Source: Punctularia strigosozonata HHB-11173 SS5
Taxonomy: Eukaryota > Basidiomycota > Agaricomycetes > Corticiales > Punctulariaceae
Direction of reading: 5' to 3'
Assembly: GCF_000264995.1 (NCBI RefSeq)
Contig: NW_006767437.1
Span: forward strand, 1,941,428 to 2,005,427
Length of the DNA stretch: 64,000 nt
Both the position numbers and the translations under genes were made by a program. This document shows, in pieces, positions 5,211 through 62,999 of this stretch. The notes under the pieces are model-generated. The model was not told the DNA's origin, made no database searches, and was given only the letters and a program-made list of their open reading frames with translations. The number at the start of each line of letters is the position of its first letter. Position 1 is the stretch's first letter.

Positions 5211-5928
5211 ATGGCCCGTTTCTCCTTCCTCCAGGTCTTCCTCTTCGCCAACGGTACGTGCGCTCCCGACGCCCTTCCTCTCGCCTCTGACACGATCCCC
5301 CACCTAGTGGCGCTCATGGCTGCCGCGCAAGGCACCAAGTTCATCACCGAAGCGTGTGCGGCCGACAGCGAGTGCGCGTCCGGCTGCTGCGGTTTCAACT
5401 CTGGATTGTGTGCCGGCGCTGTGATCGCCCAGGAGCGTGACGGTGGCTGCGGCCACGGTGACGCCTTCCCCAACAACAACGCGGCGGTTGCGCTCCTCGG
5501 GCCCAACGCCGAGGCCGCGCCAGGCGTCCCGAAGGCGGGTGTCACCACCGCGGCGGCGGCGGATAACGCAGCTGCAGGTACGTCCCTATCTCCTTATTCC
5601 ATAGCCGCATTTGTTGACGATTTGCTCTCCAGCCACCACTTCGGTTGCCGCTGCTGCGGCTACGAGCGCCGCCGCTACCTCGGCTGCTCCGGGCACCAAG
5701 TTCATCACCGAGGCGTGCGCAAGCGACAGCGAGTGCGCGTCCAGCTGCTGTGGCTTCAACTCGGGCAAGTGCGCTGCCGGCGTCGTCGCCCAGGAGCGCG
5801 ACGGTGGCTGCGGCCACGGCGATGCCGTGCCCAACAACATCGCGGCGCAGAAGATCCAGGGCCCGAACGCGGAGAAGGCGCCGGGCGTTCCCCGGGCCCG
5901 CATGCTCCGCAACGTGATGCGCGTCTGA
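5211..5928 (+). CDS. Secreted protein with two tandem cysteine domains (BAS2-like)
   Basis: Three exons: 5211-5253, 5308-5577 and 5633-5928, with introns 5254-5307 and 5578-5632. Splicing exon 1 to exon 2 gives a clean signal peptide (MARFSFLQVFLFANVALMAA). Two near-identical modules follow, each with the pattern TKFITEACAxDSECASxCCGFNSG, then CAxxVxAQERDGGCGHGDAxPNN. The first is in exon 2 and the second in exon 3, joined by an Ala/Thr-rich linker. The module resembles small fungal secreted proteins around Magnaporthe BAS2 (biotrophy-associated secreted protein 2), which normally carry one copy. Role: extracellular, function unknown. The single-copy relatives are known from plant-associated fungi, but the family is also common in saprotrophs, so a virulence role should not be assumed. 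The C-terminus (MLRNVMRV) is basic. Confidence 0.85.
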
Positions 5929-7409
5929 ACATCCAATTGTGTAGTTTATTGTGAATAGAACGGCTTGTGTTAGACGTATACCTGGCTCTTGTGTGACGCC
6001 TCCGCTCCCATGAGTGTGATCAGAGACAAGGTATTTGGAGGATGTGATCTACGGAGCCGCCTCATACGTCTACCCCTCCATCGCCGCTGATCACTACGTC
6101 GACGTCCCAGTCCACGGCAGGCACCCTTTTCGTGCTGGTGCCGGTGTCGAATGTGGATAGATCGTGCCGCAGTACGTGCATTCAGAGAAAGCAGTGTATG
6201 TTTAACTGCTGCCCGATAGAACGGCGGTTTCGTGTAGTTATATTGCAATGAGCCTCCTCCGGTTTTCTTGCTTCCCGCGGTAACACGATTGTGATTGACA
6301 GCAGTATGTAAAGTCGATGTTGAGATGAACCGCTCAATATACAGACATGCCAGGTGAAGCTGGAAGTCGCTGTATGGGGCTGTGTCCTCGGTGTTCACTG
6401 ACACTACAGTGTAAAGGCACTGGTTGATGCACTCAAAACCGGCAGGCTCCTGCATTTCGCACATGCCACATTCTCTTTCTTTTGACCACCTACAACTATG
6501 TAAGCTACTACTTCCATACTGCACAAATTTTTTTGGATGAAATCTGGGCGGAAGTGAGCAATGAGGGTTGATCCGCCCAGGGGAGGCCTGGCGCGCATAA
6601 AACGTTCGTTGATGCAGTGGCAGTGCCCACGGCAACTGATGCAGCCATCACATCGGGTCACACCGTCGCTTTATGCCGGTAAGCTCTCACACGCTCCCAA
6701 GGCGCGTCGTGCGTTGGTGCATCACCCTCCGGTCTTCAGGATAGGCTCTGAGTTGCTACCCGCCACAGATGATCCTATGTCACTAATGAAAACTGCACCC
6801 GAGATATAAAACAATGCATTGGTGCTTTTTTGGAGGTTATCTGATTGTAATTGGAAGCGAAACAGGATGCACATCTTGTGGTACATACTCAAAACAGCCT
6901 GTTTGCGAAAGTGAACGATTTTTAGAAAATCAGAGAGTGCTTCGATTCGTTGGAAAACTCGGATCTAGTATATTCAAGCATGCATCTACCCCCTGATTTA
7001 ATCTCAGAACTCTCAGACGCTTCCTTCGTGTGGAATTGTCGTTTGCATCAAGGAGTGCGGCTGCATCAAGCAGTGCCTTTACACTGTACGGGCTGTTGCG
7101 CGGACCTGAGTGCGCCAACCTTGGCAGGTTTATCTGTCTCTGATGCGTCCGACGCGGTCTACTGCCGTTCCACATGGTCCATTCGTGTGAGCCATCTATG
7201 CTTTGCATTCAACTCGTGTTCATCGGTGCCATCGTCCGAGCCAGCATCTGCTCTGAATCTGAACACGGCCCTAGTCCATGAGGTTGCAACAGGCATAGCT
7301 TGGCCTTTTACATATATGCTCGGGCTTGTTCTGATGCCCGCACATATTGTACCCTCTCGTTGACTTCAATTGGGGTCTGACTACTACTACTACCACCACC
7401 ACCCCCACT
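5929..7409. other. Intergenic region between the secreted protein and the arrestin array
   Basis: No supported gene. A 221-codon minus-strand frame at 5970-6635 has no recognisable motif and lies over the presumed 3' UTR of the secreted-protein gene. The segment 6800-7000 is AT-rich. The last 100 bases contain a TATA-like ACATATATG near 7310 and an ACC/ACT-rich leader before the ATG at 7410. Confidence 0.5.
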
Positions 7410-9395
7410 ATGGACGGACCGCCGGACGACCTGCCCCCGCCGCACCCGGAGGCCCACCTCGCCGCCGCAGATCACGAAGAGCTACCCGCCTATGGCGAGC
7501 CTCCTCGCGCGCCCGAGCCGCGCATCCCGACAGGCAGCAGGCGCGAGCGCATCGAACACACGTACACGCTCACGAACAGGAACGATCGGCCGTGGTTGAC
7601 GCTCAAGCTACGGAGCCGCGCGCAGCAGCCGACCTACCTTCCGTACTACTTCGAGGGGGATGAAATCGCCGGGAATGTGGAGCTCAACTTGGAGAACGAG
7701 GACAGCATTCGTGAGGTTGCTGTCATTGTGCGTTACTGCTTGATTTGCGGTATCATCCTTTCTGAGCCTTTGTTCCTGTGCAGTTGAAGGGTCAAATCGG
7801 GAGCACGGCCTTGGACGCGATCACCTTCGTCAATATGCAGGAAGTCGTCTGGTCGACTGGAATGGGCGCCCCTCGTGCATTCCCGGTCTCAGAAGAGTCA
7901 GAGGCGGAACAAGCCAACAGCGCCCGTACCACACCCTCGCCTACACACGGTTCGACCACCTCCGCTTCCTCACGCGGGTCGTCACGTTCATCTTCGCGAG
8001 GCCCGAGCGCTTCCACCTCACCTGCAAACCCGTCATTTTTCACCTCGCCAAGGTTCCTCCGGCGCTCGTCCTCTTCGAGTGCCCCTGTGCACAGCGGCAA
8101 GCTCTTGGGCAAGTACGCATGGCCATTTTCGATGACGCTGCCCAAGTCAGTCACACTGCGCCAGAAGAACGATGTGGAAGGGAAAGCGTACGTCCTTCCG
8201 CCGTCGTTCAGCGAGCGCTCGGGCGTGCGCGTCACGATCCAGTACGAGCTGTACGTCAAAATTCGGCGCGGCAAACTGCGCGTGGATAGCAAGTGAGTTT
8301 GAGGCTCGCGAGCCTGTTTATATCTTTGCTGCTTCATATTATTGATCTCCCGTAATGTAGGGTGGGAACTGTGTTTGGATATACACCGATCAGCCAGCCA
8401 CCGCCACCCTCGATGTTGCGCCAGTTGGCGTATCAGGAGCATCTCCCGGCTCTTGTGGGTCCAGATGGAGATCCCGACGGCTTCGACGTCTCGGACCCTG
8501 CCACGATACACGCCAGGGTGTTCGACAGTCGCGATATCCAAGTAACTTGCAAGGTCAGTCAGAGCCGACCCGACGCATATGATCGCTTTTTCATGCTGAA
8601 TTTTCCTTTCACGCAGTTATGCCTCGCAAAACCTGTGGGTGCTCATTGGTCTCGCATCATGCTCGATAATTAAACGCGCGCGAACAGCTTACATACACCC
8701 GGGGCACGCCAATCCCGCTCGTGCTCTACGTAACCTGCCCCGACGCGCTCTCGCTCGACTTGCTCAACCCGGCCGTGCTGAGCAAAGCCGTACAGCTTCT
8801 CCGGCACGTCGCGCACAACCCGACGCCGGACGCGAACGCTAAGGCGAAGACGGCTCCGGCGATGGGGCGCCCCAACAGAGGTCCGAGCCGGCCTGGTGCG
8901 GCCGATGTCGGATTTACCGTAAGCTCCCGCTTATCTCTTCTGCTCCCAGAACTTATCTCTGCATCGTGCAATGTAGCTCGCAACCCACTTTGTTAAGTCG
9001 GCGGTGCTGTGGCCGCATATGGAGGGGACGGGCAGTCCAGAAGACTCGCATACACGCCGGTTTGATGGTGAGATTGTGCTCCCGAACGACCTAAAGCCGA
9101 CGAGCTCGCTCCTCCACTTTGACCTCCACGTTAGTCCCTGCCGTTCTCCCTCTCTACTTTCCCGCTTCTGATAGTCGTGTTACGTGTTCAGTACTCGGTG
9201 ACCCTCTTCCCACCCGTGGCGCCGTTCCTCGCGTGCGCAGACGAAGCGCCGCTCGTCTCGCGTAATGTTGAGATCGTCACGGCTTACGCGCGAGGGCCAA
9301 AGCCCCGTGCGATGTCTCCGCCCGGCTACGACCTCGGAACATGGACCCCGGCGTACGCGCCCAGTTTTCCTGTTGGGACGGCTTTTGTGGCGTAG
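7410..9395 (+). CDS. Arrestin-like protein, tandem paralogue A
   Basis: Seven exons: 7410-7727, 7784-8292, 8361-8553, 8617-8634, 8688-8918, 8977-9129 and 9192-9395. The start at 7410 (MDGPPDD) was chosen over an in-frame upstream ATG at 7347 because paralogue C starts with MDG at the same place. A Pro-rich head precedes the conserved segment ERIEHTYTLTN, then LTLKLRSRAQQPTYLP and FEGDEIAGNVEL, a beta-sandwich pattern like arrestin N-domains. Exon 2 contains a Ser/Thr-rich insert of about 70 residues (7900-8100) that the other two copies lack or shorten. Family knowledge: fungal alpha-arrestins act as adaptors in ubiquitin-dependent endocytosis of membrane transporters. No PPxY motif was seen, so that role is only inferred. 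The final exon ends with TAG at 9393-9395. Confidence 0.82.
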
Positions 9396-9839
9396 TCGTG
9401 TGCGTATTTGTATGTAGCTAGTTCCTCTTCTTTGGGTGGATATGGTTTTCGTTGTAACGTAGAGTACTGTATGCGCGTCTCTGTAGTTCACTGTGGGCCG
9501 GCTTCATTCACGCCGAAGCCGGCCTTCTGTACGTACGATGATCTACCCCTGTTGATCCCTTCTGTCATGATGGCAGCCGCAAGAAGGCCGAACAGCCATT
9601 CGCTATACATGCTAGGCATGGCTTCCCTGATCTAGCGCCCGACCAAGGTGTTTGACCGCAGCACTGACGGATACACCGCGCGACGTTTTGTACGATGTCG
9701 GACCTTCGTTGGCCGTTTACGTTCGTTATCTTCACCGCCAGTGCTTTCAATAGCAGAGTTGTGTCATGAACCGCCCCTCTTTGGACAAGACGGTTCAATT
9801 CGCTATGTAGCACTGATCATCCCCGGTGGAGTTCGCGAA

Positions 9840-9848
9840 TATATATAC
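9840..9848 (+). promoter_or_regulatory. TATA box that decides the start of arrestin paralogue B
   Basis: A TATATATAC-type box lies only about 25 bp before the first in-frame ATG at 9866. Transcription would therefore begin at or after that ATG, which favours the next in-frame ATG at 9923 as the real start. Confidence 0.5.
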
Positions 9849-9922
9849 AAACCACTGTTCATGCATTGATGGGGTGTCGTATCATTACACCTCGTCTGAG
9901 GTCTCTCCGACAGCGCATCTTC

Positions 9923-11603
9923 ATGGCGAATTATCTGGCCGACGTACGTTCGTCGAGCTCGTCGACTAGGGGTACTACTGCTGGGCCATCCCCGACCTAC
10001 CCGTTGCTCAGACGGCTCCCGAGACTGCCCGCATCTCTTGCGGTTATCCCTAATCGTGGACTCGAGAAGACCGAGCACACATATACACTCGCGAACGGGG
10101 AGGAGAAGCCATGGTTGAGACTGAAGTTGCGTAGTCGTGCCCAGAGATCGACCTCCTTACCCTCCTACTTCGAGGGTGAGGAAATTGCAGGGAGCGTGGA
10201 ACTGGACGCGGAGAGCCCGAACAAAATCAGAGAGGTCGTTGTGGTCGTACGTGACATGGACAGCCGAGGTTCCTTGTTCTTCTATCTGATCCAAGGATCT
10301 CATGCAGGTGAAAGGAAAGGTGGGTAGCGCGTCACTGCCTGCAAGTACGTTTGTAGAGATGAAGGAGGTCGTCTGGTCCACAACGTCGATAAGCCCACGG
10401 AACACTCCTCCCGCCGACAGCGAGTGCGCTCGACGACACTGTATCAACCTCACCGGAACCTGCTCCTGGCCGTTTTCGTTTCTGTTGCCCAAGCATGTGT
10501 TGCTGAAAGGCAAACAGTATCTGCTCCCGCCATCCTTCAGCGAACCGTCCGGAGTGCGCGTGAGCGTCCGGTATGGGATCTATGTTATGGTCCGGCGAGG
10601 CAGCTGGCAGGCGAGCACAAAGTAGGTAGACGTGCGGGGCGCTGAGAAGCGACAGTCCTGAATATTGTTTGACGCAGGATGGGGACGATGTTCGGATATA
10701 CGCCCGCCACCAGTGTGGCTCCGCCGTCCCTGCTTTGGACGCTCGCCGATAGGAAGCAGCACCTCAGCACTGACAGAGCCGGATTCCTGGGACCGACGGT
10801 TATGCGCGCTAGGGTGTTTCACGATCGCGTCGTGAAGCTAACATGTGAGGTGGGTGGCAGCTACGGCCCTTGGCGCGAGGATCAAATTTCTGACAAGATC
10901 CGTTGCATGCAGTTGTATCTCGCAAAGCCCGTGAGCGCCCGCTGCATCATGCTCCCGTTCGGGGGTGCGTGGCTGATCGAAAATGTCCAGCTCGCATACG
11001 CTCGTGGTACGGCTGTCCCCATCGTCATGTGGATAAGCTGCGCGGACTCCGCCGCGCTAGCGCTTCTCGCACCGGACGCGCTGAGTAAGGCGGTCCGGCT
11101 CCGCCGCCACGTCTGGTTTGACCCATTACTGGCCGGCCCTGAGGTGACGGTAAGCCTAACTGATCCCGCTAGCAGGCCTGATCCTATAACGAAACCCGTC
11201 CCCTACAATAGTGCGTGCAATCGGCGGAGTTCCGGTTGGTCGATGAAAGCGTCGACGAAACGGGTTTGAGTACTCGGCGGTTCGACGGCAGGATCGCCCT
11301 TCCCGAGGATCTCAGCCCGACCAGCGCACTTCCGCACTTCTTTCTCCAGGTTCGTCTCGCGCATCCTTTCCGTAATAAAGGGCCAACTAATGCTCGGATG
11401 CGGTGCGGCACTCTACACTGTAGTACTCCGTGGCACTCTTCGCCCCCGTCGTGCCTTGCTTCGTGTGCGTGAACGGTGGAGGTATGCCCCTCATAAGCCG
11501 TCATGTCGCCATAGTCGGCATGGGCGCACAGGTCGTGACCCAGGGTGATCAGCGCGCCCGAATGCACTATCGGGAGGTGATTGGGAGCCAATATGCAGCG
11601 TAA
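9923..11603 (+). CDS. Arrestin-like protein, tandem paralogue B
   Basis: Same architecture as its neighbours: exons 9923-10246, 10308-10621, 10678-10849, 10913-10930, 10991-11149, 11212-11349 and 11424-11603 (TAA). Conserved blocks in order are EKTEHTYTLAN, LRLKLRSRAQ, YFEGEEIAGSVEL, a KGKVGSASLPASTFVEMKEVVWS block in exon 2, MGTMFGYTP at the start of exon 3, YLAKP in the 18-nt exon 4, and YARGTAVPIV in exon 5. The Ser/Thr-rich insert of paralogue A is almost absent. Introns 3 (10850-10912, 63 nt) and 4 (10931-10990, 60 nt) are both multiples of three and free of stops, so a transcript retaining them would still be readable. I prefer splicing because the paralogues have introns at the same positions. 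Confidence 0.8.
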
Positions 11604-12201
11604 TCGGAGGAGGAGACCGCCGCATTGCGCGTGAGCATCCTTTCCACCGAGACGATACCGAACGGTCGAATTGGAGGAGAAATGATGTCATACGGACTTC
11701 GAGGTCGAAGACATGCCTGATTTCCGTCTGGAGTGCAGAGCCGAGCGGAGTACTAGTAGCCAAACCTATGCTGAACACAGTTTCATGGAGGGAAGAGAGC
11801 TGCGAGGTAACTCGCGGTAAGACCTGCTGTGACATGGCATCCCAGTCCCAACCGCGCACAGAATGGAGAAAACCGCGAGGCTTCCATGGCAGGCGGTGGT
11901 GTAGGGTTCAATGCGCGCTGGGCGATCATCGGTTCGAAAGCCAAGAATGAACCATGTATGTAAGATCATCCAACTTTAGGGCACCGCTCTCCAAACCTTC
12001 GCTCGGCATCCCTGTCCCTCATCGTGGCTGCGCTGGCAGTGCAGATCTCGCATTTGGCTGATGGACAGCGCACGTATTGCCACAGGTGCTTCGAGCTTGA
12101 TGCTGTCATCACGATCGTGAATGGGACTGGCGGATATAGATTGTGCTATCCATGCTGTGAAGGAATCGTGCAGCCCCAGCGAGGTCTCTCCTCAGCACCA
12201 C
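11604..12201. other. Spacer between arrestin paralogues B and C
   Basis: About 600 bp without a supported gene. Several short frames are present but none resembles the flanking family. It should contain the terminator of B and the promoter of C. I see no convincing TATA box close to the ATG at 12202. Confidence 0.4.
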
Positions 12202-14031
12202 ATGGACGGTCTCCGGTACGACGCGCCTGCGCCGGCTACTCTCGCTATTGACGCTGCGGCTGGGCACCCGCCGGCCTATCGCGTGGCGAGACGGCTACCG
12301 AAGCTGCCTGTAGCCATCGACACAACCGGTCGCGTGAGCGAGAAGACGGAGCACACGTACACCCTCGCAAACAGGAAGGGAAAACCGTGGTTGACGCTGA
12401 AGCTGCGCAGCCGCGCACAACAGCCAAGTTTTCTGCCTTCGTATATCGAGGGCGACGAGATTGCGGGACGGGTGGAGCTGGACGCGGAGGGCACGAACGG
12501 TATCCGAGAAATCGCGGTGGTTGTACGTAATCAGTGTCCGAGCACCGTGGCCCCTTGTGTCCTCATGAAGCATCATTTGCCCTGTACAGGTAAAAGGACA
12601 AGTAGGGAGCTCATCGATGGACGCAACCACGTTTGTCGAAACGAGAGAGGTCATCTGGCCGATGGCGTCGCCACGATCGCCGTTGAGCACCAACAGCCCA
12701 CTATCTTCCCCGGAAAGCGAAAGCGCATTGCTCGATGGTGGCAGGCTCACGGGAGCGTGCTCCTGGACGTTTTCGCTGACGTTGCCGGGGAAAGTACTGC
12801 TTGGGAGTGACGGGGACAACAAGGTCTACCAGCTCCCACCATCGTTCGGGGAGCGATTGGGCGTGCGCGTGAGCGTCCAGTACGACGTCTATGTTAAGGT
12901 CCGGCGGGCTAGGTTCCGCGCGAATGCAAAGTGGGTGATCGTAGAAATCCACTCGACTGTAGCGATTTTCCTGAAGCTTTGTGGTGGCGCAGGATCGGGA
13001 CGATGTTCTGCTACATGCCCCTCGTCCGACCGCCACCGCTCCCACCGCTCCGCGCTTTGGCGTATAGGGCGCAGCTCCCGGCTCTCATAGGCTGGCTTGG
13101 CGATCCGGAGGGTTTCGAGGTCTTGAAGCCGGCAAGTATCAAAACCCGGGTGTTCCACGACCGCGACGTAGAGGTTATGTGCGAGGTGGGGTCGGTGCGA
13201 TCCTCCATGGTGGTCTTGGGTTCCTGACGAGTTTTCATCCGAATAGATATACCTCGCAAAGCCTGTGAGCGCCCCCCTCCACCCCGTTTGTGATCCGCAC
13301 GCTAACCAACTTCCAGCTCGCTTACACCCGTGGGACGGCCATCCCTCTGGTCGTGTCCATAAGCTGCTCTGACCGCGCCGCGCTCGATCTCTTGAACGCT
13401 GACGTGCTCGGCAGAGCAGTCCGGCTTATCCGCCACGTATGGTACGATTCACGACCGGGAGGGAGCGCACGAGCGCATGGTTCGCCAGCCATCGCCGAGT
13501 TCACGCTCGGAGAACAGTTGTCGGAAATCCCGGTGACGGTGAGCGAAGATCAGGGCACCGATCCCGGGGTAAATTTGAATCATGCTTGCCTCCTAGCTTG
13601 CGCACCACTTCGTCGCGTCGGCCGCGCTCCGGGTCGCCGACGACGAACGCGACGACGGCGTTGCCTTGTACACCCGCCGTTTCAATGGTGAGATTGCCCT
13701 GGCCAGGGACCTCAAGCCGACTTGCGCGCTCCCGATATTCTTCCTCCAGGTCAGTCCCGCGCGTCCGTCCGAGCGGGCCCAATCAAGGCTGATGCTGACC
13801 CTTTCGCCGCCCTAGTACTCGGTCGCGATCTTCGCGCCCGCCGCACCAGGTTTCGTTTGCGTGGACGAAGCTGACACTCCACTCTTTTCCCGTAATGTGG
13901 AGGTCGTCACGGCATATGCGCCCGGGCCGCAGCCGAGGCCGAGGCCGTTCAACGCTCCTGGATGCGATGCTGGAACGCGGGCACGAGCGTACGGGCAAGA
14001 TACAGGGGGAAGACTGGTGAATTGCGTGTAG
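12202..14031 (+). CDS. Arrestin-like protein, tandem paralogue C
   Basis: Seven exons: 12202-12522, 12590-12930, 12993-13185, 13247-13264, 13317-13538, 13597-13749 and 13816-14031 (TAG). All six introns sit at the same places and phases as in A and B, including the 18-nt exon 4 (IYLAKP). Conserved blocks: EKTEHTYTLANRKGKPWLTL, LRSRAQQPSFLP, GDEIAGRVELDAEG, FVETREVIWP, IGTMFCYMP and YTRGTAIPLVVSISC. The last exon encodes YSVAIFAPAAPGFVCVDE, SRNVEVVTAYAPGP and a short divergent tail. The start is the ATG giving MDGLRYD. Likely role as for paralogue A: an intracellular beta-sandwich adaptor, by analogy with alpha-arrestins; not shown here. Confidence 0.8.
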
Positions 14032-50628: not shown

Positions 50629-51614
50629 GACGTGAAGTTGGTACAGCACGATGATCCCGAAATCGGGTGTTTCTTTTTGAGAGAACAAGTCAGAGGGTGG
50701 GGACGAGACCGTATGAAGGTTGTTACCGCGCTACAGGGTCGTAAGTAGCAAGCGCCGAAGCGCGTGATTTCCGGCGACCCCGGCTGCACTGAATCAGGCT
50801 CTGGTATTCTGGCCATGCTAGGACCTCTGTCAAGTTTGAAAAAGACAGAGAGTAGTTTCAGAAATGATAGATCCCCTGATTGTTCAGTGAACGGAGTTGT
50901 GAAACCTGTCCGTCCATTAGCCGTGCGAACTACGAGTAAGATATGGCGTTATGTATTGGCATTAGTGTTAACTTACACTCACCTGCCCCAGCGCTTGTTT
51001 CTTGACTGCGTTTACCTGGTCTCTCGAGCTTTCATCCTACCTTAGGCCTGTGCACCGCGTCGCTCAGAAAATGGCCAGACTCGGGGACCCTTCGTACAGC
51101 AATCTGCAGGACGTCAGATTGTGACAACGTCTGTCATCATCCACTCCCTTGCGGGCGTACAAAGCTTGCAAATCGCAGCTTCGCCGCTGGTCCCCCGATA
51201 AACTCAGTTGCTACGGTCCTGTCCCTGTTCTTCTAGATGGATGCTCTTATCGGGGATGTTGGTCGGGTGCTGCATCCGGAAGCAAACACAATCTCTAGTT
51301 GAATCGGCCCGTGCACGCAGCACGCATGCATCCTGCAGGAACACCGGAACAGACCCACGTCCTCTTTTTTTTCTTTTGTCATTACATATTGGCTCAACAA
51401 TCACCGAGCCGCTCGGCGTATCAGAGACCGAAAAGGATCGGCATCAGTACCGCTTGAAGCCAACGACGCTGCGATCATTGCGACTTTGACGGCCCAAGGA
51501 GCCCTTGCGCGTCCGTCGGGGAAGGTTCACATGGACTTGTCCTAAGTATATATATAATGCCATTTGCGCTCCTGTCATCTACACCGTTTGCAACCCGCCG
51601 ACATCCTCAACACC
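50629..51614. other. Intergenic region before the mini-peptide array
   Basis: About 1 kb with no recognised gene. Small frames at 50764-51045 and 51208-51489 lack motifs. The right end holds the promoter of peptide gene 1. Confidence 0.5.
51547..51556 (+). promoter_or_regulatory. TATA box of secreted peptide gene 1
   Basis: TATATATAAT about 60 bp upstream of the ATG at 51615. Distance and sequence fit a core promoter with a short leader. Confidence 0.6.
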
Positions 51615-51752
51615 ATGCGCTTCACTACCATCTTCGTCGCCGTCGCCGCTCTCGTCGCTGCTGCCTACGCAGCACCCGAGCCGGTTGCAAAACCAATATG
51701 CGCTATCTTCCCGTGCACTTGCATTGGTGAGCCCAGCTGCTGCTGCGCCTGA
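51615..51752 (+). CDS. Secreted cysteine-rich peptide precursor 1 (45 aa)
   Basis: Single uninterrupted coding exon. Residues 1-19 form a signal peptide (MRFTTIFVAVAALVAAAYA). Residues 20-27 are four X-Pro/X-Ala dipeptides (AP-EP-VA-KP). Residues 28-45 are an 18-mer with six cysteines at its positions 2, 7, 9, 15, 16 and 17, following the consensus XCxIxPCxCxGxxxCCCx shared with genes 2 and 3. Predicted path: secretion, signal-peptide removal, then stepwise trimming of the dipeptide pro-region. An intron donor (GGTATGT) starts 1 nt past the stop, as in the paralogues. Function unknown; six cysteines in 18 residues imply up to three disulfides. I do not recognise a described family. A TATA box and the conserved paralogues support it as a real gene despite its size. 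Confidence 0.85.
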   Translation: MRFTTIFVAVAALVAAAYAAPEPVAKPICAIFPCTCIGEPSCCCA

Positions 51753-53137
51753 GGTATGTGTATACTGCACTGCCTTTTTCATGCATTTGACCGACACGAC
51801 GCTCGTTGTTAACGTGGCCATTTGCTCGTGCGGCGAAGAAAAGGGTGTCTTGGGAGGACTGTCTTGGTGCCTGGGGGGAATGCGGATGGATGTACCAGAC
51901 GGTCACGATTACTATACAGCTCCCAAAACTTCCGGTGACCAGCCCACGAAGCACTGCATGCAATGGAACTATATGAACCGACTATGTCAAGATTTTCTGA
52001 GTTCGCGAATGTGCCGGTGGAATGCGACCCGGCGATGCAGTGGGCTGACGCAATTCCGTGCAGAATTTGCTCACCACCGTATGAATCTTCGTATAAGATG
52101 CCAGCCCGCGCCTTGACGAGGGCGTCTCCCCAGCAGCATTCCTCGATGACAACGTCCCCTCTGCTCGCTTCTTACGTTCAAGTTGCGGCCAGCGACGTGG
52201 TTAGAAATACCATGTCTTCCTCTTGACACGCCGTCTCATGTTTGACCAGTACTGGCTGTCGTTTACAGAACATCCGACGATGACTCGCTCGTTGGTACTC
52301 CTTCGGCCTGATCCTGGATGCTGTAACTGCGACCTGCTGTTAAGTTGAGCTCTATCTGAGGCCCTCAATTTTGCCGCCGACAGTAACGGCTTTCGGGACA
52401 CCGATCCAATTCCGCTCTATAATCGGCCAGCCCACCATACACCGGCGACAAGCGAGGCATCGGCGCTCCTGAATGGAAACCGGATCATGTGGAGTCTTCG
52501 GCAATCTGTGCTCTCGTGTACACCTGATAACGACTACCGCAGGGCTTATTGTGGTGTCGCTTGCAGGTGATCGCAGCAAGCTCAATCCAGGCATATTCAC
52601 GCATGATTTGATTATGATGGTATCTACTACGCCACGCCGGACTCTATGGTCTCTCCATCTCCCGGGTCAACAACCTTGAACAATCAAAAATCTTCACCTA
52701 AACTACGGACTGACGGTCCGTCTCAGCTGGTCCATAGCACTATGTCATCCGGGTCACTTGATGCGATTGACTCATGGAGAAAAGTCGTGCCGTGGACGCA
52801 TGATACTCCGTTCCAAGTGGATAGGATAGGCCAGCAGTATCCCTTCGGGTCGTCAGCTCGCGTTATGCAGAACCGGATCGATTGTATACTGACTGCTGGC
52901 GGCCCAGTCAAGACATCACAAGGGGTGCAGGTGCAATCTCTCAGTGGTTCTCCGTGGCTGCTTTAAGCGGCACTCACCAGAATCCATCAGAAGAGTACAG
53001 TTAGTCTCAGGATAGTATCACCTCCGTAGGCGACCTTGAGACTAACTGCGGCTCCGTCACCGTCGGGGGAGTTTGGAAGACTATATAACGACGCAGTTCT
53101 GAACATTTCAACCTCATCAGGAGCCAAACAACTTACT
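51753..53137. other. Spacer between peptide genes 1 and 2
   Basis: About 1.4 kb. The first part should be the 3' UTR of gene 1, including an intron that starts at 51754. No other gene is recognised; frames at 51963-52226 and 52646-52966 lack motifs. Confidence 0.5.
53083..53089 (+). promoter_or_regulatory. TATA box of secreted peptide gene 2
   Basis: TATATAA about 50 bp upstream of the ATG at 53138, equivalent to the boxes of genes 1 and 3. Confidence 0.6.
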
Positions 53138-53296
53138 ATGCGCTTGACTAACTTCGTCGGTGCTGTCGTATTCCTCGCTGCTGTCCTGGGCATTACGCAC
53201 GCTGCCCCCGAGCCCGAGCCCGAGGCAGAGCCAGAAGCACACTGCGACATCTTCCCTTGCGTCTGTGCTGGGCAACCAGCTTGCTGTTGTGACTGA
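53138..53296 (+). CDS. Secreted cysteine-rich peptide precursor 2 (52 aa)
   Basis: Paralogue of gene 1. Residues 1-22 form a signal peptide (MRLTNFVGAVVFLAAVLGIT then HA). Residues 23-34 are six dipeptides (AP-EP-EP-EA-EP-EA), a textbook substrate pattern for dipeptidyl aminopeptidases of the Ste13/DPP-IV type. Residues 35-52 are the 18-mer with all six cysteines in the family positions and the conserved I, P and G. The variable positions differ from gene 1, including the first and last residues. The intron donor (GGTCAGC) begins 4 nt after the TGA. The ATG nearest the TATA box was chosen. Function unknown. Confidence 0.85.
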   Translation: MRLTNFVGAVVFLAAVLGITHAAPEPEPEAEPEAHCDIFPCVCAGQPACCCD

Positions 53297-54108
53297 AAAG
53301 GTCAGCTTCCTGTCCTCAGGAATAGCGTCGAGATGATGACAATGTGCAGCGTGGTTAATGCTACCGAGGGTCACGCCGAACGTCGTGCACATACCGGATC
53401 AACAGTGAATAGAGTAATTGAGGGTTAGTAGGCGTGTCTACGCAATTGCGAGTATAATGCTTGTGTATTCGCACACGATGGGCTCGCAGTTATCGCATTC
53501 AGCATAGCTCAGAGCAGAGTGAAGCGTGTTGAGTCCCAAAACTCTCTGAAAAGACGACAGACACTGACGGTCAGTGACTCAAGGTTACTTTCGGTGGCCT
53601 CACTTCGAGAATTTATGTTTGCTTGCCACGTCAATTCCTTGAATCCGTTGCGCTCGCTGGCGTCAGAGGTGTATCAATTGGCAGCGCCGCTCTACCAGGC
53701 TACACTCCGCATGTGAACGGGCAATTCGAATCATGCGACGTCATGCAGATGCGATATTCATTTCGCATCAAATTCGCTCCCGCTCCATGTGCAACGGAGA
53801 ATCGCAACCGCCTATAAAATACGCCGTTCAGATAGGCATCACGAACAATCCGGAGCCAGGTACGCTCGTGGGACGCCCATGGAAAGTGACGCACCCGTAT
53901 TGGAAGCGGTGCCGCCATCACTGATGCGCGATCTACGAGCGCTCAGGTACTTTCGTCAAATGGTACTCGCGCTTATCGCGGCAAGGATGACAAGCAGCAC
54001 TGGTTCGTGAAAGGAAGCACGCGTATAAATGCGAGCTGCAAGGCAAGGGAGATAGCAGGCCCATCGCACTCACCTTGCTCACCCGCAAAGCACGATCATA
54101 CACACACC
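53297..54108. other. Spacer between peptide genes 2 and 3
   Basis: About 810 bp: the 3' region of gene 2 with an intron donor at 53301, and the promoter of gene 3. A TATAAAA at 53813-53819 is followed by no recognisable member of the peptide family, though a decayed copy cannot be excluded. Confidence 0.5.
54024..54029 (+). promoter_or_regulatory. TATA box of secreted peptide gene 3
   Basis: TATAAA about 80 bp upstream of the ATG at 54109. It overlaps the first bases of a longer in-frame ORF starting at 54007, which argues that translation starts at 54109 rather than 54007. Confidence 0.6.
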
Positions 54109-54252
54109 ATGCGTTTCACGGTCGTCGTCGTCGCCCTTGCCACGCTCGCCACAATCGCCTTCGCAGCTCCCGAGCCTAAGCCTGCGCCTGTGCCGAAGTG
54201 CTTGATTGACCCGTGCCCTTGCATCGGGAAAGGCGGCTGCTGCTGCGCATAA
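54109..54252 (+). CDS. Secreted cysteine-rich peptide precursor 3 (47 aa)
   Basis: Third paralogue. Residues 1-19 are the signal peptide (MRFTVVVVALATLATIAFA), residues 20-29 five X-Pro dipeptides (AP-EP-KP-AP-VP), and residues 30-47 the 18-mer with the six family cysteines and the conserved I, P and G. It is the most divergent in the variable positions, carrying two lysines and a Gly-Gly before CCC. An intron donor (GGTAAGC) begins 1 nt after the TAA. An upstream in-frame ATG at 54007 is rejected because it lies 5' of the TATA box and would destroy the signal peptide. Function unknown. Confidence 0.85.
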   Translation: MRFTVVVVALATLATIAFAAPEPKPAPVPKCLIDPCPCIGKGGCCCA

Positions 54253-55725
54253 GGTAAGCGATCCTACGATTTTGTTACAGCATTTGACTGCTTACGAACA
54301 TGCAGCATCGCAAACATAGCCGATGGAGGGTTGCGAGGAACTACTGTCGGCGGCTTTGGAAGAGACAGCATGAGCGGAGCGTTTGATACTATTAGTACCT
54401 GTACTTCAGCCGCCATATGAATCTTCTTTCGCGTTCGAGCATTGCCGCAAAGCAAGCATGCACGAATGCTTTGAATGCTTCGGCTAAGCGATAGTGCTCA
54501 ATCAACGTAAGGTCCAGAGGACGCGTGTCCGTAGTATTCTACTGAATGCGCCTGAACCGCCCGGAGAGTGTTCCTGACAGTCGTTTTATGAAGTTGGAGT
54601 CCACTGCGTTGACCCTCGGAGTCTGCGACGGTTGGAGGCAAGGCGCGCGTTGGAGGCTTGACACGGTCGTGTGATCGTGAGAAGGCCGCGCGGTCCCCAT
54701 AAAATTGCAATTGCTCCCTTTACGCTTTCCTTCGAACAATCATGGGGACACAAAAGTTCGGGCTCGGTGCAAGCTTTCCGTTTCCTTGTCCGCGTTCCCG
54801 TCCCCTAGACTGACCCAAGGTGCAATCATGCGCTGGATCTCCTTCTTGTCTCGGGTTAGGTTCGTTTGACCGGCATTCATCGACTGGGAGGCATCGCTTC
54901 AGCTGATGCTCATGATTCGTCGAGAGATGCTGGGAGGATCTAGGTTGGGACGAGGTGGAACCTACATCTATTTTGCCGTATGTCTCTTCAGCGAACCTAT
55001 ATCCACATGCTTGTACTTCGATAGAACGATACGATCCATTCGTGGTCACTCAAGAAACTGTCCTGAGACATGCTTTCTTCGGTCCAGGCAAATCTGTGCA
55101 AACGTCACATACCCTCATCACAGACCGTACCGCCCTGGATAGTCATTCCCACCACAAAAATTCTTACCGTGAAGTCCGAGGTAGATCACTAGACGCCTAC
55201 GGTCATAAGACCGGAACTCATGGTCATAGCTACCTCGACAAGGCGAATAGAGCGCGACATCGACTCTATGACCCGAACATTTCCCTTCCAGGACGACTCC
55301 GATAATCTGCCGATCTCATCCCCGTTGCATGAATCATGTTCCCCTCTTCAATCGCAGAATGCTATGAGTACATGGTGTTACATCCAACACGTCACTGCTC
55401 ATGCCCTGGTCTAAAGTAGGTAGCAAAATGGGATTCTCGATCGCGCTAAAACTGACTAGTTGTATCCATAGGTCTTTCGCAATATTCCGTGGATCCGCAT
55501 CTTCTTATGATGCGAGCTTCTTCCGGTAGTATGGGTGGGGTATCATGATTACGGAATTGCACCTTCGCCCGCTCGGAAGCTCGGCACCTGCAACTCACAT
55601 GCGTAGGCCCTTTCGCGACTATACCCCGGAAGACCGCCACGTCGACTTACTAGAGTCGCTTTAAAGAGCGATCGGCGCATAGAGATCGGCATCGCGAGGG
55701 TCCCTCAATTCAGTTCAATTTAGTC
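54253..55725. other. Intergenic region between the peptide array and the xylanases
   Basis: About 1.5 kb. It begins with the 3' UTR intron of peptide gene 3 (donor at 54254). Frames at 54498-55305 on both strands show no motif. No further member of the peptide family was found. Confidence 0.5.
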
Positions 55726-57569
<1,844 letters not shown>

Positions 57570-58240
57570 ACTTCACTTGCTTGCTAATGCGCAGCAAAAC
57601 GATTCGTGAGGCCGTGTAACATACCAAATTAAATTCAGATATTTCTTGTCATGCTGGAGAAAAGAAAATGGAGAATATTCACTCACTCAAATCATGGTAT
57701 GCATGTTTGTTGACGGCCCTGCCGAACTTCGTGGGTACATTCAAGCCATTGACTGGCTCCGCCTTATCTCACCAACCTCTCGCAGTGACTAGCACACGCC
57801 GGGTGGTTATTGCTTGGACCAGCGCAGGTAGAGACTATCGCCGCTTTTTGTACTAAGTATCCAGGGCTGAGGCCTCGAGCTCAACTTGAACATGCACCTC
57901 GGTGTCTATACTTTGAATTCGTTTCGGAAATAGAAACGTGGGGGACCAGCGGTCGGAGCCGAACACAGAGCACAAGCCGGCGCTTCTCCCATTACTTCCT
58001 CGTGACGCGGACTTCTTCCGGAGAAGGGGCATGGCCATGGTGACCACCGCTGACAGCGGTCCGTCGAGCTCCCCAGCTTGGTTCTTCTTCATTTAGGTAC
58101 ACGGGAGCACGCACATGTCGGGCGTTTTTGCGACATTCCTCCGTTGGCGCGTCGTTCCTACAACCACGGGCGCGTTATAAGGCGATGTTGCAAGGTGCTC
58201 TGCTGCTAAGGTCCCACCCGGTCATACGGCTTCGCTCAGG
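57570..58240. other. Spacer between the two xylanase genes
   Basis: About 670 bp, no gene recognised. A TATAA at about 58176-58180 lies 60 bp before the ATG of copy B and is the likely core promoter. Confidence 0.5.
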
Positions 58241-59819
<1,579 letters not shown>

Positions 59820-60411
59820 ATGGGTCATGTTTTCATCTTGTGTTCTTCGTCTTACCGGCGAGTTCGTGTGTGAAATACCGGAATGTACTCTACATCCAGC
59901 TGTGGGATCGAGCGGAATCGAGATATCGGCTGAACACTCCGCCTAGAACAAGCCGAGAGCTGCTGAGCGTCCAGTCGCTGATCATGAGCCAGTGCATGTA
60001 AGAGGGATAAACGTATGGGAGACCTTAAAAATCCTACGAGAAACCTTCCCTTGCCCGCTGATATCACTTCTACACGGTGATCCGCGTTCATTGTGAGCAA
60101 GAAGATACAAACATATGAAGACCGATATGGTCGCGCTCAGATAACCACGTGCCGGCATGTGCCGAAGCTGATGCCGAAGCTGATGCCGGGCTGATCTGGC
60201 TGACATAGCTGCATGGACCATGGACACCAGGTTGAGCAAAGCGCTGCACCAAGGAGTCGCCAACAGAATTTTTGGATATCTTTGGCAACAATTAATTATG
60301 TGGCACATTGGTCTAGTGGGTCCATTACCTAATATAAGGCTTACCATGTATGTCGATATCAGAACGTGCACCCTGTTTTGCTCTACCATTCTGTGCGACA
60401 AACACACCGAC
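59820..60411. other. Spacer between xylanase B and the alpha-kinase
   Basis: About 590 bp, no gene recognised. Contains a short 12-bp tandem repeat near 60160. Confidence 0.5.
60157..60194. repeat. Short 12-bp tandem repeat (GCCGAAGCTGAT units)
   Basis: Three units, the last diverged (GCCGGGCTGAT). Non-coding context; no function suggested. Confidence 0.7.
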
Positions 60412-62999
60412 ATGCCTGATCCACCAGGACACCATCCAGCTGAGGAAGTCCAGGCTACTTTCACCTGTGGTGGCCAGGTCTGCCAGTGTTGCTTTGTACG
60501 GTTTCAGCCTGGCAAAACAACCTTTACTACTGTGCTCAGCTCTCGTTCATCGCGTTCTGGCGAAGCGTTCAGAATATGCTGTGTGGCCTGTACAGAGTAT
60601 TATAGAATGAAGGCTGCTGCAAGTGAGTCCACATTGTGACAGGCATCCGTGTTATACACACAACATTGTCTTCAGCTTCCTCGTGGTCATCGTTGCATAC
60701 AAGTGCTCCACTCTATAGCGAGGCTATTCATCAAGATGTCTCTGCAGCTCAGCGAGGGCAAGGTATGTTCTAAAGCTACCTCCCAGCCCTATACCAGTTG
60801 ACTCTTCTCAGGAACAGCTCCTATTCAGCTAATTGGCACGGCGCATGGACTTTCTGGGCCCCAAGTTTCTTTGATCCCTCCACAAGTAGGCCGACGGAGT
60901 ATCCACTCACTGCACCCTGTCAGTGCTGTCCTTCCTGCTGTCCCTCGGGTAGCACAGGTGACAGGCACACCTATTGGCTACACCCCAGCGCATGGTCAGC
61001 TTGGCTCTCAGCTTGCTATATACCAGTCTCATGCTAGCGGCTTGTCTGAAACATTCAACGCGTCTGTCTTGATGGGTCGAATTGTCTGTAGTGGGAGCAG
61101 CCAGAAGCTTGAGAACATTGGAGTATGCCAGCAACATTTCTATAAGACTTATCTAACTTTGATGAATCACGTCTCCCATAGGATATTGGCATCGGTGTCC
61201 CAGCAATCCCTGCACGTATTGGATTAGCAGAGCTCAAGCAATGCCTCTTTCACGCTCTTGCTCCTCGGTACAACAAGTGGTCGGAAAACTATCCTCTAGA
61301 ACTTGATGCTATAAACGTTCACTACAAGAAGCAGATTACGCCCCTCCTCCCAATGTCTCCAGATATTAATATTGTCTGGCGATTCTTGGTGAAGAAAGGA
61401 GGGGGCAAGAATGCTGTTGAAAGCTTTCAGCCAGATACTGAGCTTCCTCTCTGGCTCGTCGTTGAAGAAGAGATGTATGATCGTATTATAGGTCATATCT
61501 CACAGACACAGTCTACTTCTGAGGCCAGCTATGTGAGTCACTCTTACATTGCATTTCTCTTCCAAGAACTTACCTCGCTCCTTAGGATGATCAGGCCCAA
61601 ACAGAAAGACACAAAATGTCTGGCCGAATATCACCAACTTTGACATACATGAGTCCCTCCCAGGAGCCAATTCAGTCTCTCACAGACAGCTCGCGGGCGA
61701 AATCAGTAAGAGTCAGATTCTTGATACTATTGTCTATGCTGAGCGTACTCCTCTAGACTGAAAGAACACTGACCACCACTCGTTCGCCTCCTGGTTCACC
61801 TCCAGCTACACCTCCTCCATCCAAGCGGCTGATGACTGCAGAATTGTTCACCTCCCCGAGTCGTTATAAGGACAGACTTGATGCTGCATTGAGCGCTCAG
61901 ATGCGTCTGGACCCTGTTCAGCTTCGTGACATATGTATGTGATTTCTCAGCTGCTATTTCTCTAATCGAATTAAGTCCTCTCTTAGTGGGCAGGAAGTTC
62001 TATCCATCTGTCAGCTTTTATCATCTTCCCAAGCTCTTGCTCAGCCAACTTCTCTCCCATCAAGATCATGTACCTATCACAGGCAATTCCATGCTCCTTC
62101 AATACTGCAAGGAGCTCGAGGGTACCTTGGTCGTCGACATTGCCAATCAGATCGGCGATGGGTCCTTCAAGACTGCACACAAAGCCGAGGTGTCTGTGAG
62201 GACTGGATCTCTTCCCCAGTTGCTTCATGGCACTGTCTGTGCCAAGCAGGTTTATGTGGTCTTGGATAAGAAGCAGAGACATCGTTTAGATGGGATGAAA
62301 GAATTGCGCGAGTGCTATGGCGAACTCAACAACCTTGCATGGGGTTCTGCCCTTCTTCACGATGTTTATGCCTTTATGGCCCGTGAGGAACAGAATCTTG
62401 GCCCTCTGCCCTGGGACTGTCCAAAGATGCAGTTCGTCGAGGCTATGCTTGCCATTTGTCAAGGCCCACAGGAGAAGATTTTCCTTATCAAACAGTGGAT
62501 CCCGATTGAAGATGGCTTCTACAAGTACATTAACAACAATGTTCCTATTCCTGACACCTTTGCTGACGAGGACTTGAATACGCGCGCCGAGTTTTTGTCG
62601 TTTTCGCAGCACGTTCAATGGGTTAAGAGTGGTCAGAAAGTATTTGTCTCGGATCTACAAGGTATGTCCATCGGCGTGCATCTTGCTCAGACACTAATGG
62701 GTGCATCCAGGTGGTCGAGACCTCTTAACTGATCCACAGATCATGACACATCCGTAAGGCGTGAAGTAAATCCACCATCCTAAACCTGACCATGCATCTT
62801 TGCTAGGTCTATGGGTGATGTTTTTGGAGATGGAAACGTCCCATCAGGATTTCTCTGCTTCACCCAAAAGCATCGATGCAACAGGTACTGCTCATACTAT
62901 AAACTGCCTATCCTTCCTATCAAGACTATTCATTGCGGTGCGGGCGTAGCCTCATCTTCAGGTCATCTTAGTGCAATGAGTGTCTCATTGGACGATTAG
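60412..62999 (+). CDS. Alpha-type protein kinase (MHCK/EF2K family)
   Basis: Atypical Ser/Thr kinase. Start at 60412 (MPDPPGHHP) is tentative. The N-terminus is cysteine-rich (CGGQVCQCC then CCVACTEYY), as often seen in basidiomycete alpha-kinases, and may bind zinc. Middle exons are Pro/Ser-rich and include GTPIGYTPAHGQLGSQLA and ITPLLPMSPDINIVWRFL. The catalytic domain starts in the long frame 61926-62732: IGDGSFKTAHKAEV (nucleotide-binding loop), TVCAKQVYV with the likely catalytic Lys, EKIFLIKQWIP, FADEDLNTRAEFLSFSQHVQ and KVFVSDLQG. Downstream exons give GRDLLTDPQIMTHP, then GDGNVPSGFLCF and KHRCNRYC, the C-terminal zinc/Asp-rich signature of alpha-kinases (GxGNxGxxG-like, then HxCNxxC). 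Exon borders in 60640-61930 were not all resolved. Substrate unknown. Confidence 0.8.

What the first reader, a model, noticed from the sequence alone, without database searches (positions are those of the whole stretch)
51615..54252. Array of three mini-genes for 18-residue, six-cysteine secreted peptides
Three genes on the same strand encode 45-, 52- and 47-residue precursors. In each, a signal peptide and a short pro-region precede exactly 18 residues with cysteines at positions 2, 7, 9, 15, 16 and 17 (XCxIxPCxCxGxxxCCCx). The pro-regions differ in length but the last 18 residues align without gaps, so that segment is the conserved unit. Variable positions are fully diverged, as in a diversifying secreted family. 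Six cysteines in 18 residues with a CCC end is an unusual scaffold, and I know of no named fungal family with it.
Basis: partly seen in the sequence, partly recalled or inferred. Interest (0 to 1): 0.92.

Follow-up and report, generated by a model that had tools for sequence, protein, structure and literature searches.

The report
Three secreted six-cysteine fungal mini-peptide genes
A fungal genome carries three neighbouring tiny genes whose products look like secreted 18-residue peptides with six cysteines, each preceded by a run of two-residue units of the kind a known fungal enzyme clips off, so they are probably a small, unnamed family of peptides released into the surroundings.

Summary
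Three + strand ORFs (45, 52 and 47 aa) each start with a signal-like segment and end in C-x4-C-x-C-x5-CCC-x. These are the only matches in six frames, and 150 simulated windows gave none. TATA boxes 56-85 bp upstream of all three ATGs and an excess of third-position changes support real, constrained genes.

Between the A-x-A signal-peptidase site and the 18-mer, every pro-region is an unbroken run of X-Pro/X-Ala dipeptides: 4, 6 and 5 units. That is the substrate type of Ste13/DPP IV dipeptidyl aminopeptidases. Stepwise trimming would stop at X-Cys and release exactly 18 residues each time. No dibasic KEX2 site is present. Ste13-type trimming of other peptides in mushrooms is indicated in print.

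I propose a KEX2-free, dipeptide-trimmed precursor of a three-disulfide mini-peptide acting outside the cell. Maturation is inferred, not shown; the target is unknown. Pfam, NCBIfam and PDB sequences gave no match above threshold, but no fungal genome collection could be searched, so spread and expression are untested. The claim of a diversifying family is not supported: dN is below dS where both could be computed.

The parts
51547..51552 (+). TATA box, 68 bp upstream of gene 1 ATG
   Evidence: TATAWA expected 0.045 per 110 nt in this window
51615..51752 (+). gene 1, 45-aa precursor including stop codon
51615..51671 (+). gene 1 predicted signal peptide, 19 aa, A-Y-A | A-P site
   Evidence: sequence (-3,-1 rule, recalled); AlphaFold helix over residues 2-19; hydrophobicity 3.09
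51672..51695 (+). gene 1 dipeptide ladder AP-EP-VA-KP (8 aa)
51696..51749 (+). gene 1 predicted mature 18-mer
53082..53087 (+). TATA box, 56 bp upstream of gene 2 ATG
53138..53296 (+). gene 2, 52-aa precursor including stop codon
53138..53203 (+). gene 2 predicted signal peptide, 22 aa, T-H-A | A-P site
   Evidence: sequence
53204..53239 (+). gene 2 dipeptide ladder AP-EP-EP-EA-EP-EA (12 aa)
53240..53293 (+). gene 2 predicted mature 18-mer
54024..54029 (+). TATA box, 85 bp upstream of gene 3 ATG
54109..54252 (+). gene 3, 47-aa precursor including stop codon
54109..54165 (+). gene 3 predicted signal peptide, 19 aa, A-F-A | A-P site
   Evidence: sequence
54166..54195 (+). gene 3 dipeptide ladder AP-EP-KP-AP-VP (10 aa)
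54196..54249 (+). gene 3 predicted mature 18-mer
54254..54305 (+). possible 52-nt intron in the 3' untranslated region of gene 3 (GTAAGC...CAG); weak
   Evidence: a donor-like GTATGT also follows the stop of gene 1, but no acceptor of the sought form was found there

Best explanation
Three paralogous genes encode precursors of secreted, disulfide-dense 18-residue peptides. Signal peptidase cuts at A-x-A|AP. A Ste13/DPP IV-type dipeptidyl aminopeptidase then removes 4, 6 or 5 X-Pro/X-Ala dipeptides and stops at X-Cys. KEX2 is not needed. The six cysteines form three disulfides, and the peptide acts outside the cell on a protein or cell-surface target. A role in defence or antagonism against competitors is somewhat more likely than self-signalling. 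Shown: the ORFs, their constrained pattern, the dipeptide architecture and the promoter boxes. Inferred: secretion, trimming, disulfides and function.
For: The pattern is unique in the window: 3 matches, and 0 in 150 simulations. All 15 of 15 dipeptides in the three pro-regions end in Pro or Ala; shuffling residues within the regions reproduces this in all three for 9 of 200000 draws. The motif A-x-A-(X[PA])4+-X-C occurs in six frames of the window only in these three genes (5 overlapping rows at 3 places). Ladder lengths of 8, 10 and 12 differ by whole dipeptides. The register is fixed because a cut one residue later would put Pro at +1 (recalled signal-peptidase rule). TATA boxes lie 56-85 bp upstream in 3 of 3, with 0.045 expected per 110 nt. 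Synonymous changes fall in 6 of 11, 4 of 11 and 5 of 9 codons with the same residue. Literature: Ste13 sites are often repeated XA/XP dipeptides, and some Basidiomycota precursors carry them (PMC6339444, passages). Peptidomics in mushrooms gives what its authors call the first indication of STE13 activity in a basidiomycete (PMC9769878, passages). DPP4 homologues were found in all, or in another sentence almost all, of 42 fungal species, with transmembrane forms in all six subdivisions (PMC8469457, passages).
Against: There is no transcript, peptide or homologue. No fungal genomes could be searched, and the window's own genome is not held. The ladder tests were written after the ladders had been seen, and the three pro-regions share ancestry (APEP in all), so they are not independent. 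At the DNA level only genes 1 and 3 are clearly alike (score 59); genes 1/2 and 2/3 score 29 and 23, inside the range of random controls used in the same script (maxima 28-31), so the kinship of gene 2 rests on the protein pattern. In the papers seen, fungal Ste13 sites follow a KEX2 cut; here they would follow signal peptidase directly. AlphaFold gave no confident fold for the 18-mer (block pLDDT 56-64). Net charges of -1, -2 and +1 do not fit a membrane-active cationic peptide.
Confidence: 0.6

Rival explanations
1. The pro-region is only a flexible acidic, proline-rich spacer. The secreted product is the 26-30 residue peptide that signal peptidase leaves, with no dipeptide trimming.
For: No protease step has been observed. 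Proline-rich N-termini are low in complexity, and APEP is inherited by all three.
Against: 15 of 15 dipeptides keep Pro or Ala in the second place, and length changes keep the register.
Confidence: 0.2
2. A signalling peptide, analogous to the ascomycete alpha-pheromone: trimmed by Ste13 and sensed by a receptor of the fungus itself. (This shares the maturation model with the best explanation and differs in function, so the odds overlap.)
For: Same final processing signal. Gene 1 has a sub-threshold Pfam hit to MF_alpha_N, E 0.3, 11.4 bits against a cut-off of 22.
Against: Six cysteines and changed loops are unlike the alpha-pheromones quoted, and there is no KEX2 repeat. The Pfam hit is not significant, and genes 2 and 3 have none.
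Confidence: 0.25
3. A secreted metal-binding (metallothionein-like) peptide, in which CxC and CCC hold copper or zinc rather than form disulfides.
For: CxC and CCC motifs; six thiols in 18 residues.
Against: A signal peptide sends it through the oxidising secretory route. Only one CxC. Conserved Ile, Pro and Gly between the cysteines suggest a folded scaffold. No metallothionein match in Pfam.
Confidence: 0.12
4. Prenylated a-type pheromone-like precursors, since the last four residues CCCA/CCCD formally place Cys at the CaaX position.
For: Cys four residues from the end in all three.
Against: A signal-like start in all three; a-type precursors are made in the cytoplasm and exported by ABC transporters (PMC9769878 passage). 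Asp as X in gene 2 and Cys as both middle residues are atypical (recalled).
Confidence: 0.03
5. Chance or decayed ORFs that are not expressed.
For: No expression data. Genes 1/2 and 2/3 are not alike above controls at the DNA level.
Against:: unique pattern, TATA boxes, synonymous excess.
Confidence: 0.04

Closest known systems
Ste13-processed precursors in fungi: ascomycete alpha-pheromones and basidiomycete KEX2-processed repeat proteins (KEPs)
   Same: Signal peptide, and X-Pro/X-Ala dipeptides directly before the peptide core
   Different: One core per gene instead of repeats, no dibasic KEX2 site, six-cysteine core; core peptides quoted in the passages seen carry no more than two cysteines
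Beta-ginkgotides of gymnosperms (PMC5522442; abstract and two sections seen)
   Same: 18-20 residues, six cysteines in a 16-residue core, 37.5% Cys
   Different: Spacing C-CC-C-CC against C-C-C-CCC here; endopeptidase-cut propeptide and a C-terminal tail; plant origin
Bee promelittin and yeast alpha-factor spacers (recalled; alpha-factor also)
   Same: Stepwise removal of X-Pro/X-Ala dipeptides
   Different: Unrelated products; melittin has no cysteines (recalled)
Small cysteine-rich proteins of mushrooms (PRI3/cylindracin, PMC11532979, passages)
   Same: Secreted Cys-rich mushroom product, with antifungal activity shown for a recombinant fragment
   Different: 95-residue precursor with eight cysteines; the authors suggest no processing beyond the signal peptide
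Pleurotus poSSP family (PMC7105643, passages)
   Same: Secreted proteins of a white-rot mushroom, multigene family
   Different: About 18 kDa, far larger

Membership tests
KEX2-processed repeat proteins (KEPs) | N-terminal signal peptide | tested here: met
   home-made filter, helix, sequence. No dedicated signal-peptide program was run
KEX2-processed repeat proteins (KEPs) | Several repeated peptide cores in one precursor | tested here: not met
   one core in each of three precursors
KEX2-processed repeat proteins (KEPs) | Dibasic KEX2 sites (KR, RR, KK) | tested here: not met
   none in the three translations, by reading them
Ste13/DPP IV substrates | Repeated XA/XP dipeptides before the core | tested here: met
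   15 of 15 dipeptides; definition from PMC6339444
Ste13/DPP IV substrates | Trimming by the enzyme | not testable with these tools
   needs peptide mass spectrometry or enzyme
Beta-ginkgotides | 16-residue core with six cysteines | tested here: met
   sequence
Beta-ginkgotides | Cysteine spacing C-CC-C-CC | tested here: not met
   C-C-C-CCC here
Fungal metallothioneins | Cytosolic, no signal peptide (recalled) | tested here: not met
   signal-like start in all three
Fungal metallothioneins | Metal binding | not testable with these tools
   needs a binding assay
Named families in Pfam-A, NCBIfam, PDB sequences | Match above threshold | tested here: not met
   no match above any cut-off

The most novel reading that the evidence does not exclude
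A class of fungal secreted peptides not described in the sources searched: hyperdisulfide 18-mers with a C-C-C-CCC framework, released by signal peptidase plus a dipeptidyl aminopeptidase alone, without KEX2. Repeat- and KEX2-based searches for fungal peptides would overlook them, and they may be widespread and unannotated.
Probability: 0.4. Interest if true: 0.75.

Novelty: new variant of a known kind. Interest (0 to 1): 0.58.

Why it matters
If true, fungi make conotoxin-sized, six-cysteine peptides by a short route that KEX2-repeat searches would miss. The dipeptide ladder gives a specific, searchable signature (A-x-A, an even run of X-Pro/X-Ala, then X-Cys) and exact predicted masses. It would also give a Ste13-type enzyme in a fungus a natural substrate outside the KEX2-repeat class, and a compact new scaffold for peptide chemistry.

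Tried and rejected
Homologue searches: the 3-sequence alignment found no relative in viral contigs (75 pattern matches, none confirmed) or genome contigs (599, none confirmed). In the 239 records so fetched a script found 122 in-frame cores; 13 of 122 had an ATG 12-90 residues upstream, and reading those 13 I saw no signal peptide followed by a dipeptide ladder. They look like cysteine-rich readings of repetitive DNA (inference). So the cysteine pattern alone is weak evidence in very large collections.

A decayed fourth copy between genes 2 and 3 was suspected from an alignment. Local DNA matches of each gene to the rest of 50.2-55.7 kb score 20-22, against a control median of 22 and maxima of 28-31, so there is no support for it. 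This test is blunt: by the same score genes 1/2 (29) and 2/3 (23) would not stand out either.

A conserved intron just after the stop codon was considered. Donor-like GTATGT and GTAAGC follow the stops of genes 1 and 3 (the form sought follows 120 of 3883 stops), and gene 2 has only GTCAGC. An acceptor with a branch-like site was found only for gene 3, acceptors without it for gene 2, none for gene 1. Left as weak.

Selection: the YN00 method returned nothing for any pair, and NG86 dS was not computable in two of three pairs of 18-mers. For genes 1 and 3 the signal peptide gives dN 0.33, dS 0.52.

Structure: AlphaFold on the 3-row alignment (mean pLDDT 68.8) shows only a signal-peptide helix; the mature part has low confidence, so no fold search was run. 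I saw no such framework in the titles and abstract starts listed, but the lists are capped, only openly licensed papers are held, and I opened six papers, none in full. One search returned 0 papers; (three consecutive cysteines, secreted, fungal, peptide) returned one wheat defensin paper.

Full report
Observation. The three ORFs are at 51615-51752, 53138-53296 and 54109-54252 on the + strand. A six-frame search for C-x4-C-x-C-x5-CCC finds these three and nothing else, and each lies at the end of an ATG ORF. 150 order-2 Markov simulations of the window gave no match. Among 964 ATG starts with ORFs of 25-150 aa, 53 passed a simple home-made signal-peptide filter, and these three have the highest cysteine density.

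Are they genes? Each has a TATA box 68, 56 or 85 bp before the ATG, where 0.045 such sites are expected per 110 nt. In the 18-codon unit, differences by codon position are 5/6/11, 6/4/7 and 7/7/12, so the third position changes most, clearly in two pairs and slightly in one. Of codons with the same residue, 6 of 11, 4 of 11 and 5 of 9 differ synonymously. NG86 dN is 0.33, 0.31 and 0.52; dS is 1.03 for genes 1 and 3 and not computable for the other two pairs; YN00 gave no values. Nine of 18 positions are invariant: six Cys, Ile4, Pro6 and Gly11. Whole precursors of genes 2 and 3 are 49% and 58% identical to gene 1. At the DNA level only genes 1 and 3 stand out (score 59); 1/2 and 2/3 score 29 and 23, within random-control maxima of 28-31.

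Precursor architecture, the main new point. After the predicted signal-peptidase site (A-Y-A, T-H-A and A-F-A, each before A-P), the residues up to the 18-mer are AP-EP-VA-KP, AP-EP-EP-EA-EP-EA and AP-EP-KP-AP-VP. Every one of the 15 dipeptides ends in Pro or Ala. Shuffling residues within each region keeps this in all three regions for 9 of 200000 draws; this controls for composition, not for shared ancestry, and the test was written after the ladders were seen. The combined motif A-x-A, four or more X-[PA], X-C occurs in the window only at these three places. The two neighbouring ORFs with xylanase-type starts, at 55726 and 58241, have no ladder in their translations. A dipeptidyl aminopeptidase of the Ste13/DPP IV type removes such units from a free N-terminus; it should stop at I-C, H-C and K-C, because Cys is not a preferred residue in that place (recalled; XA/XP preference from PMC6339444). 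The result is 18 residues in all three cases although the precursors are 45, 52 and 47 long.

Is such trimming plausible here? In PMC6339444 (passages) the authors describe STE13 sites as often repeated XA or XP and report clear signatures in some Basidiomycota repeat precursors. In PMC9769878 (passages) peptides from Pleurotus precursors with such motifs were found by mass spectrometry, and the authors call it, to their knowledge, the first indication of STE13 activity in a basidiomycete. [quoted passage not shown] In the fungal examples in these passages the ladder follows a KEX2 cut; here no dibasic site exists, so signal peptidase would expose it directly, as in bee promelittin (recalled). 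That difference is what makes this a new variant.

What does the peptide do? The predicted peptides are small (1776-1878 Da with three disulfides), with side-chain charges of -1, -2 and +1. A common cationic membrane-lytic action is unlikely. A conserved cysteine scaffold with changed loops in neighbouring paralogues suggests recognition of protein or surface targets. I give defence or antagonism a slight lead over self-signalling, with metal binding third; this is judgement, not a result. AlphaFold does not help: only a signal helix (residues 2-19, pLDDT near 80) appears, and no residue reaches 90.

Relations. Pfam and NCBIfam give nothing above cut-off (the only hint is MF_alpha_N at E 0.3 for gene 1, half its cut-off). 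The profile matches no PDB sequence at E up to 10. The nearest peptides in size and cysteine density that I met are the beta-ginkgotides, with six cysteines in a 16-residue core, but their spacing is C-CC-C-CC (abstract and sections 10 and 12 of PMC5522442). That paper compared 65 mapped six-cysteine peptides of 2.0-3.0 kDa, a range just above the masses here; a C-C-C-CCC spacing is not mentioned in the sections that I read.

Surroundings. The genes lie between - strand frames (PEX11-like at 49.6-50.2 kb, below the Pfam cut-off; BRF1 at 46.5-48.5 kb; actin-like at 44.5-45.6 kb) and + strand GH10 xylanase frames (56.4-56.8 and 59.2-59.9 kb). No peptide-modifying enzyme was recognised in the ten frames scanned by Pfam, which are only part of the window. 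The taxon is unknown: broken frames that suggest many introns, and the xylanases, suit a wood- or litter-decaying fungus, but that is inference.

Limits. No fungal collection could be searched. Homology beyond the window, expression, processing and disulfides are all untested.

Noticed in passing
5211-5928, + strand: Another secreted-looking cysteine-rich product: the segment FITEAC..DSECAS.CCGFNSG.C occurs twice, in two frames separated by what looks like an intron near 5578-5632. Pfam gave only a sub-threshold hit to a phage family, probably chance.
   Followed up: partly
55726-59946, + strand: Two GH10 xylanase frames (56386 and 59167) and two similar starts with signal peptide and WGQC (55726 and 58241), looking like two tandem xylanase genes; exons were not joined or checked.
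   Followed up: partly
61893-62732, + strand: Frame with a weak alpha-kinase match (E 0.0017, just under the Pfam cut-off).
   Followed up: no
54254-54305, + strand: Possible intron starting one base after the stop codon of gene 3; a donor-like GTATGT also follows the stop of gene 1.
   Followed up: partly
7335-13090, + strand: Three similar frames in a row with HTYTLxNxxxxPWLxLKLRSRAQ, perhaps a tandem arrestin-like family (Arrestin_N E 0.0097 for one frame, below cut-off).
   Followed up: no
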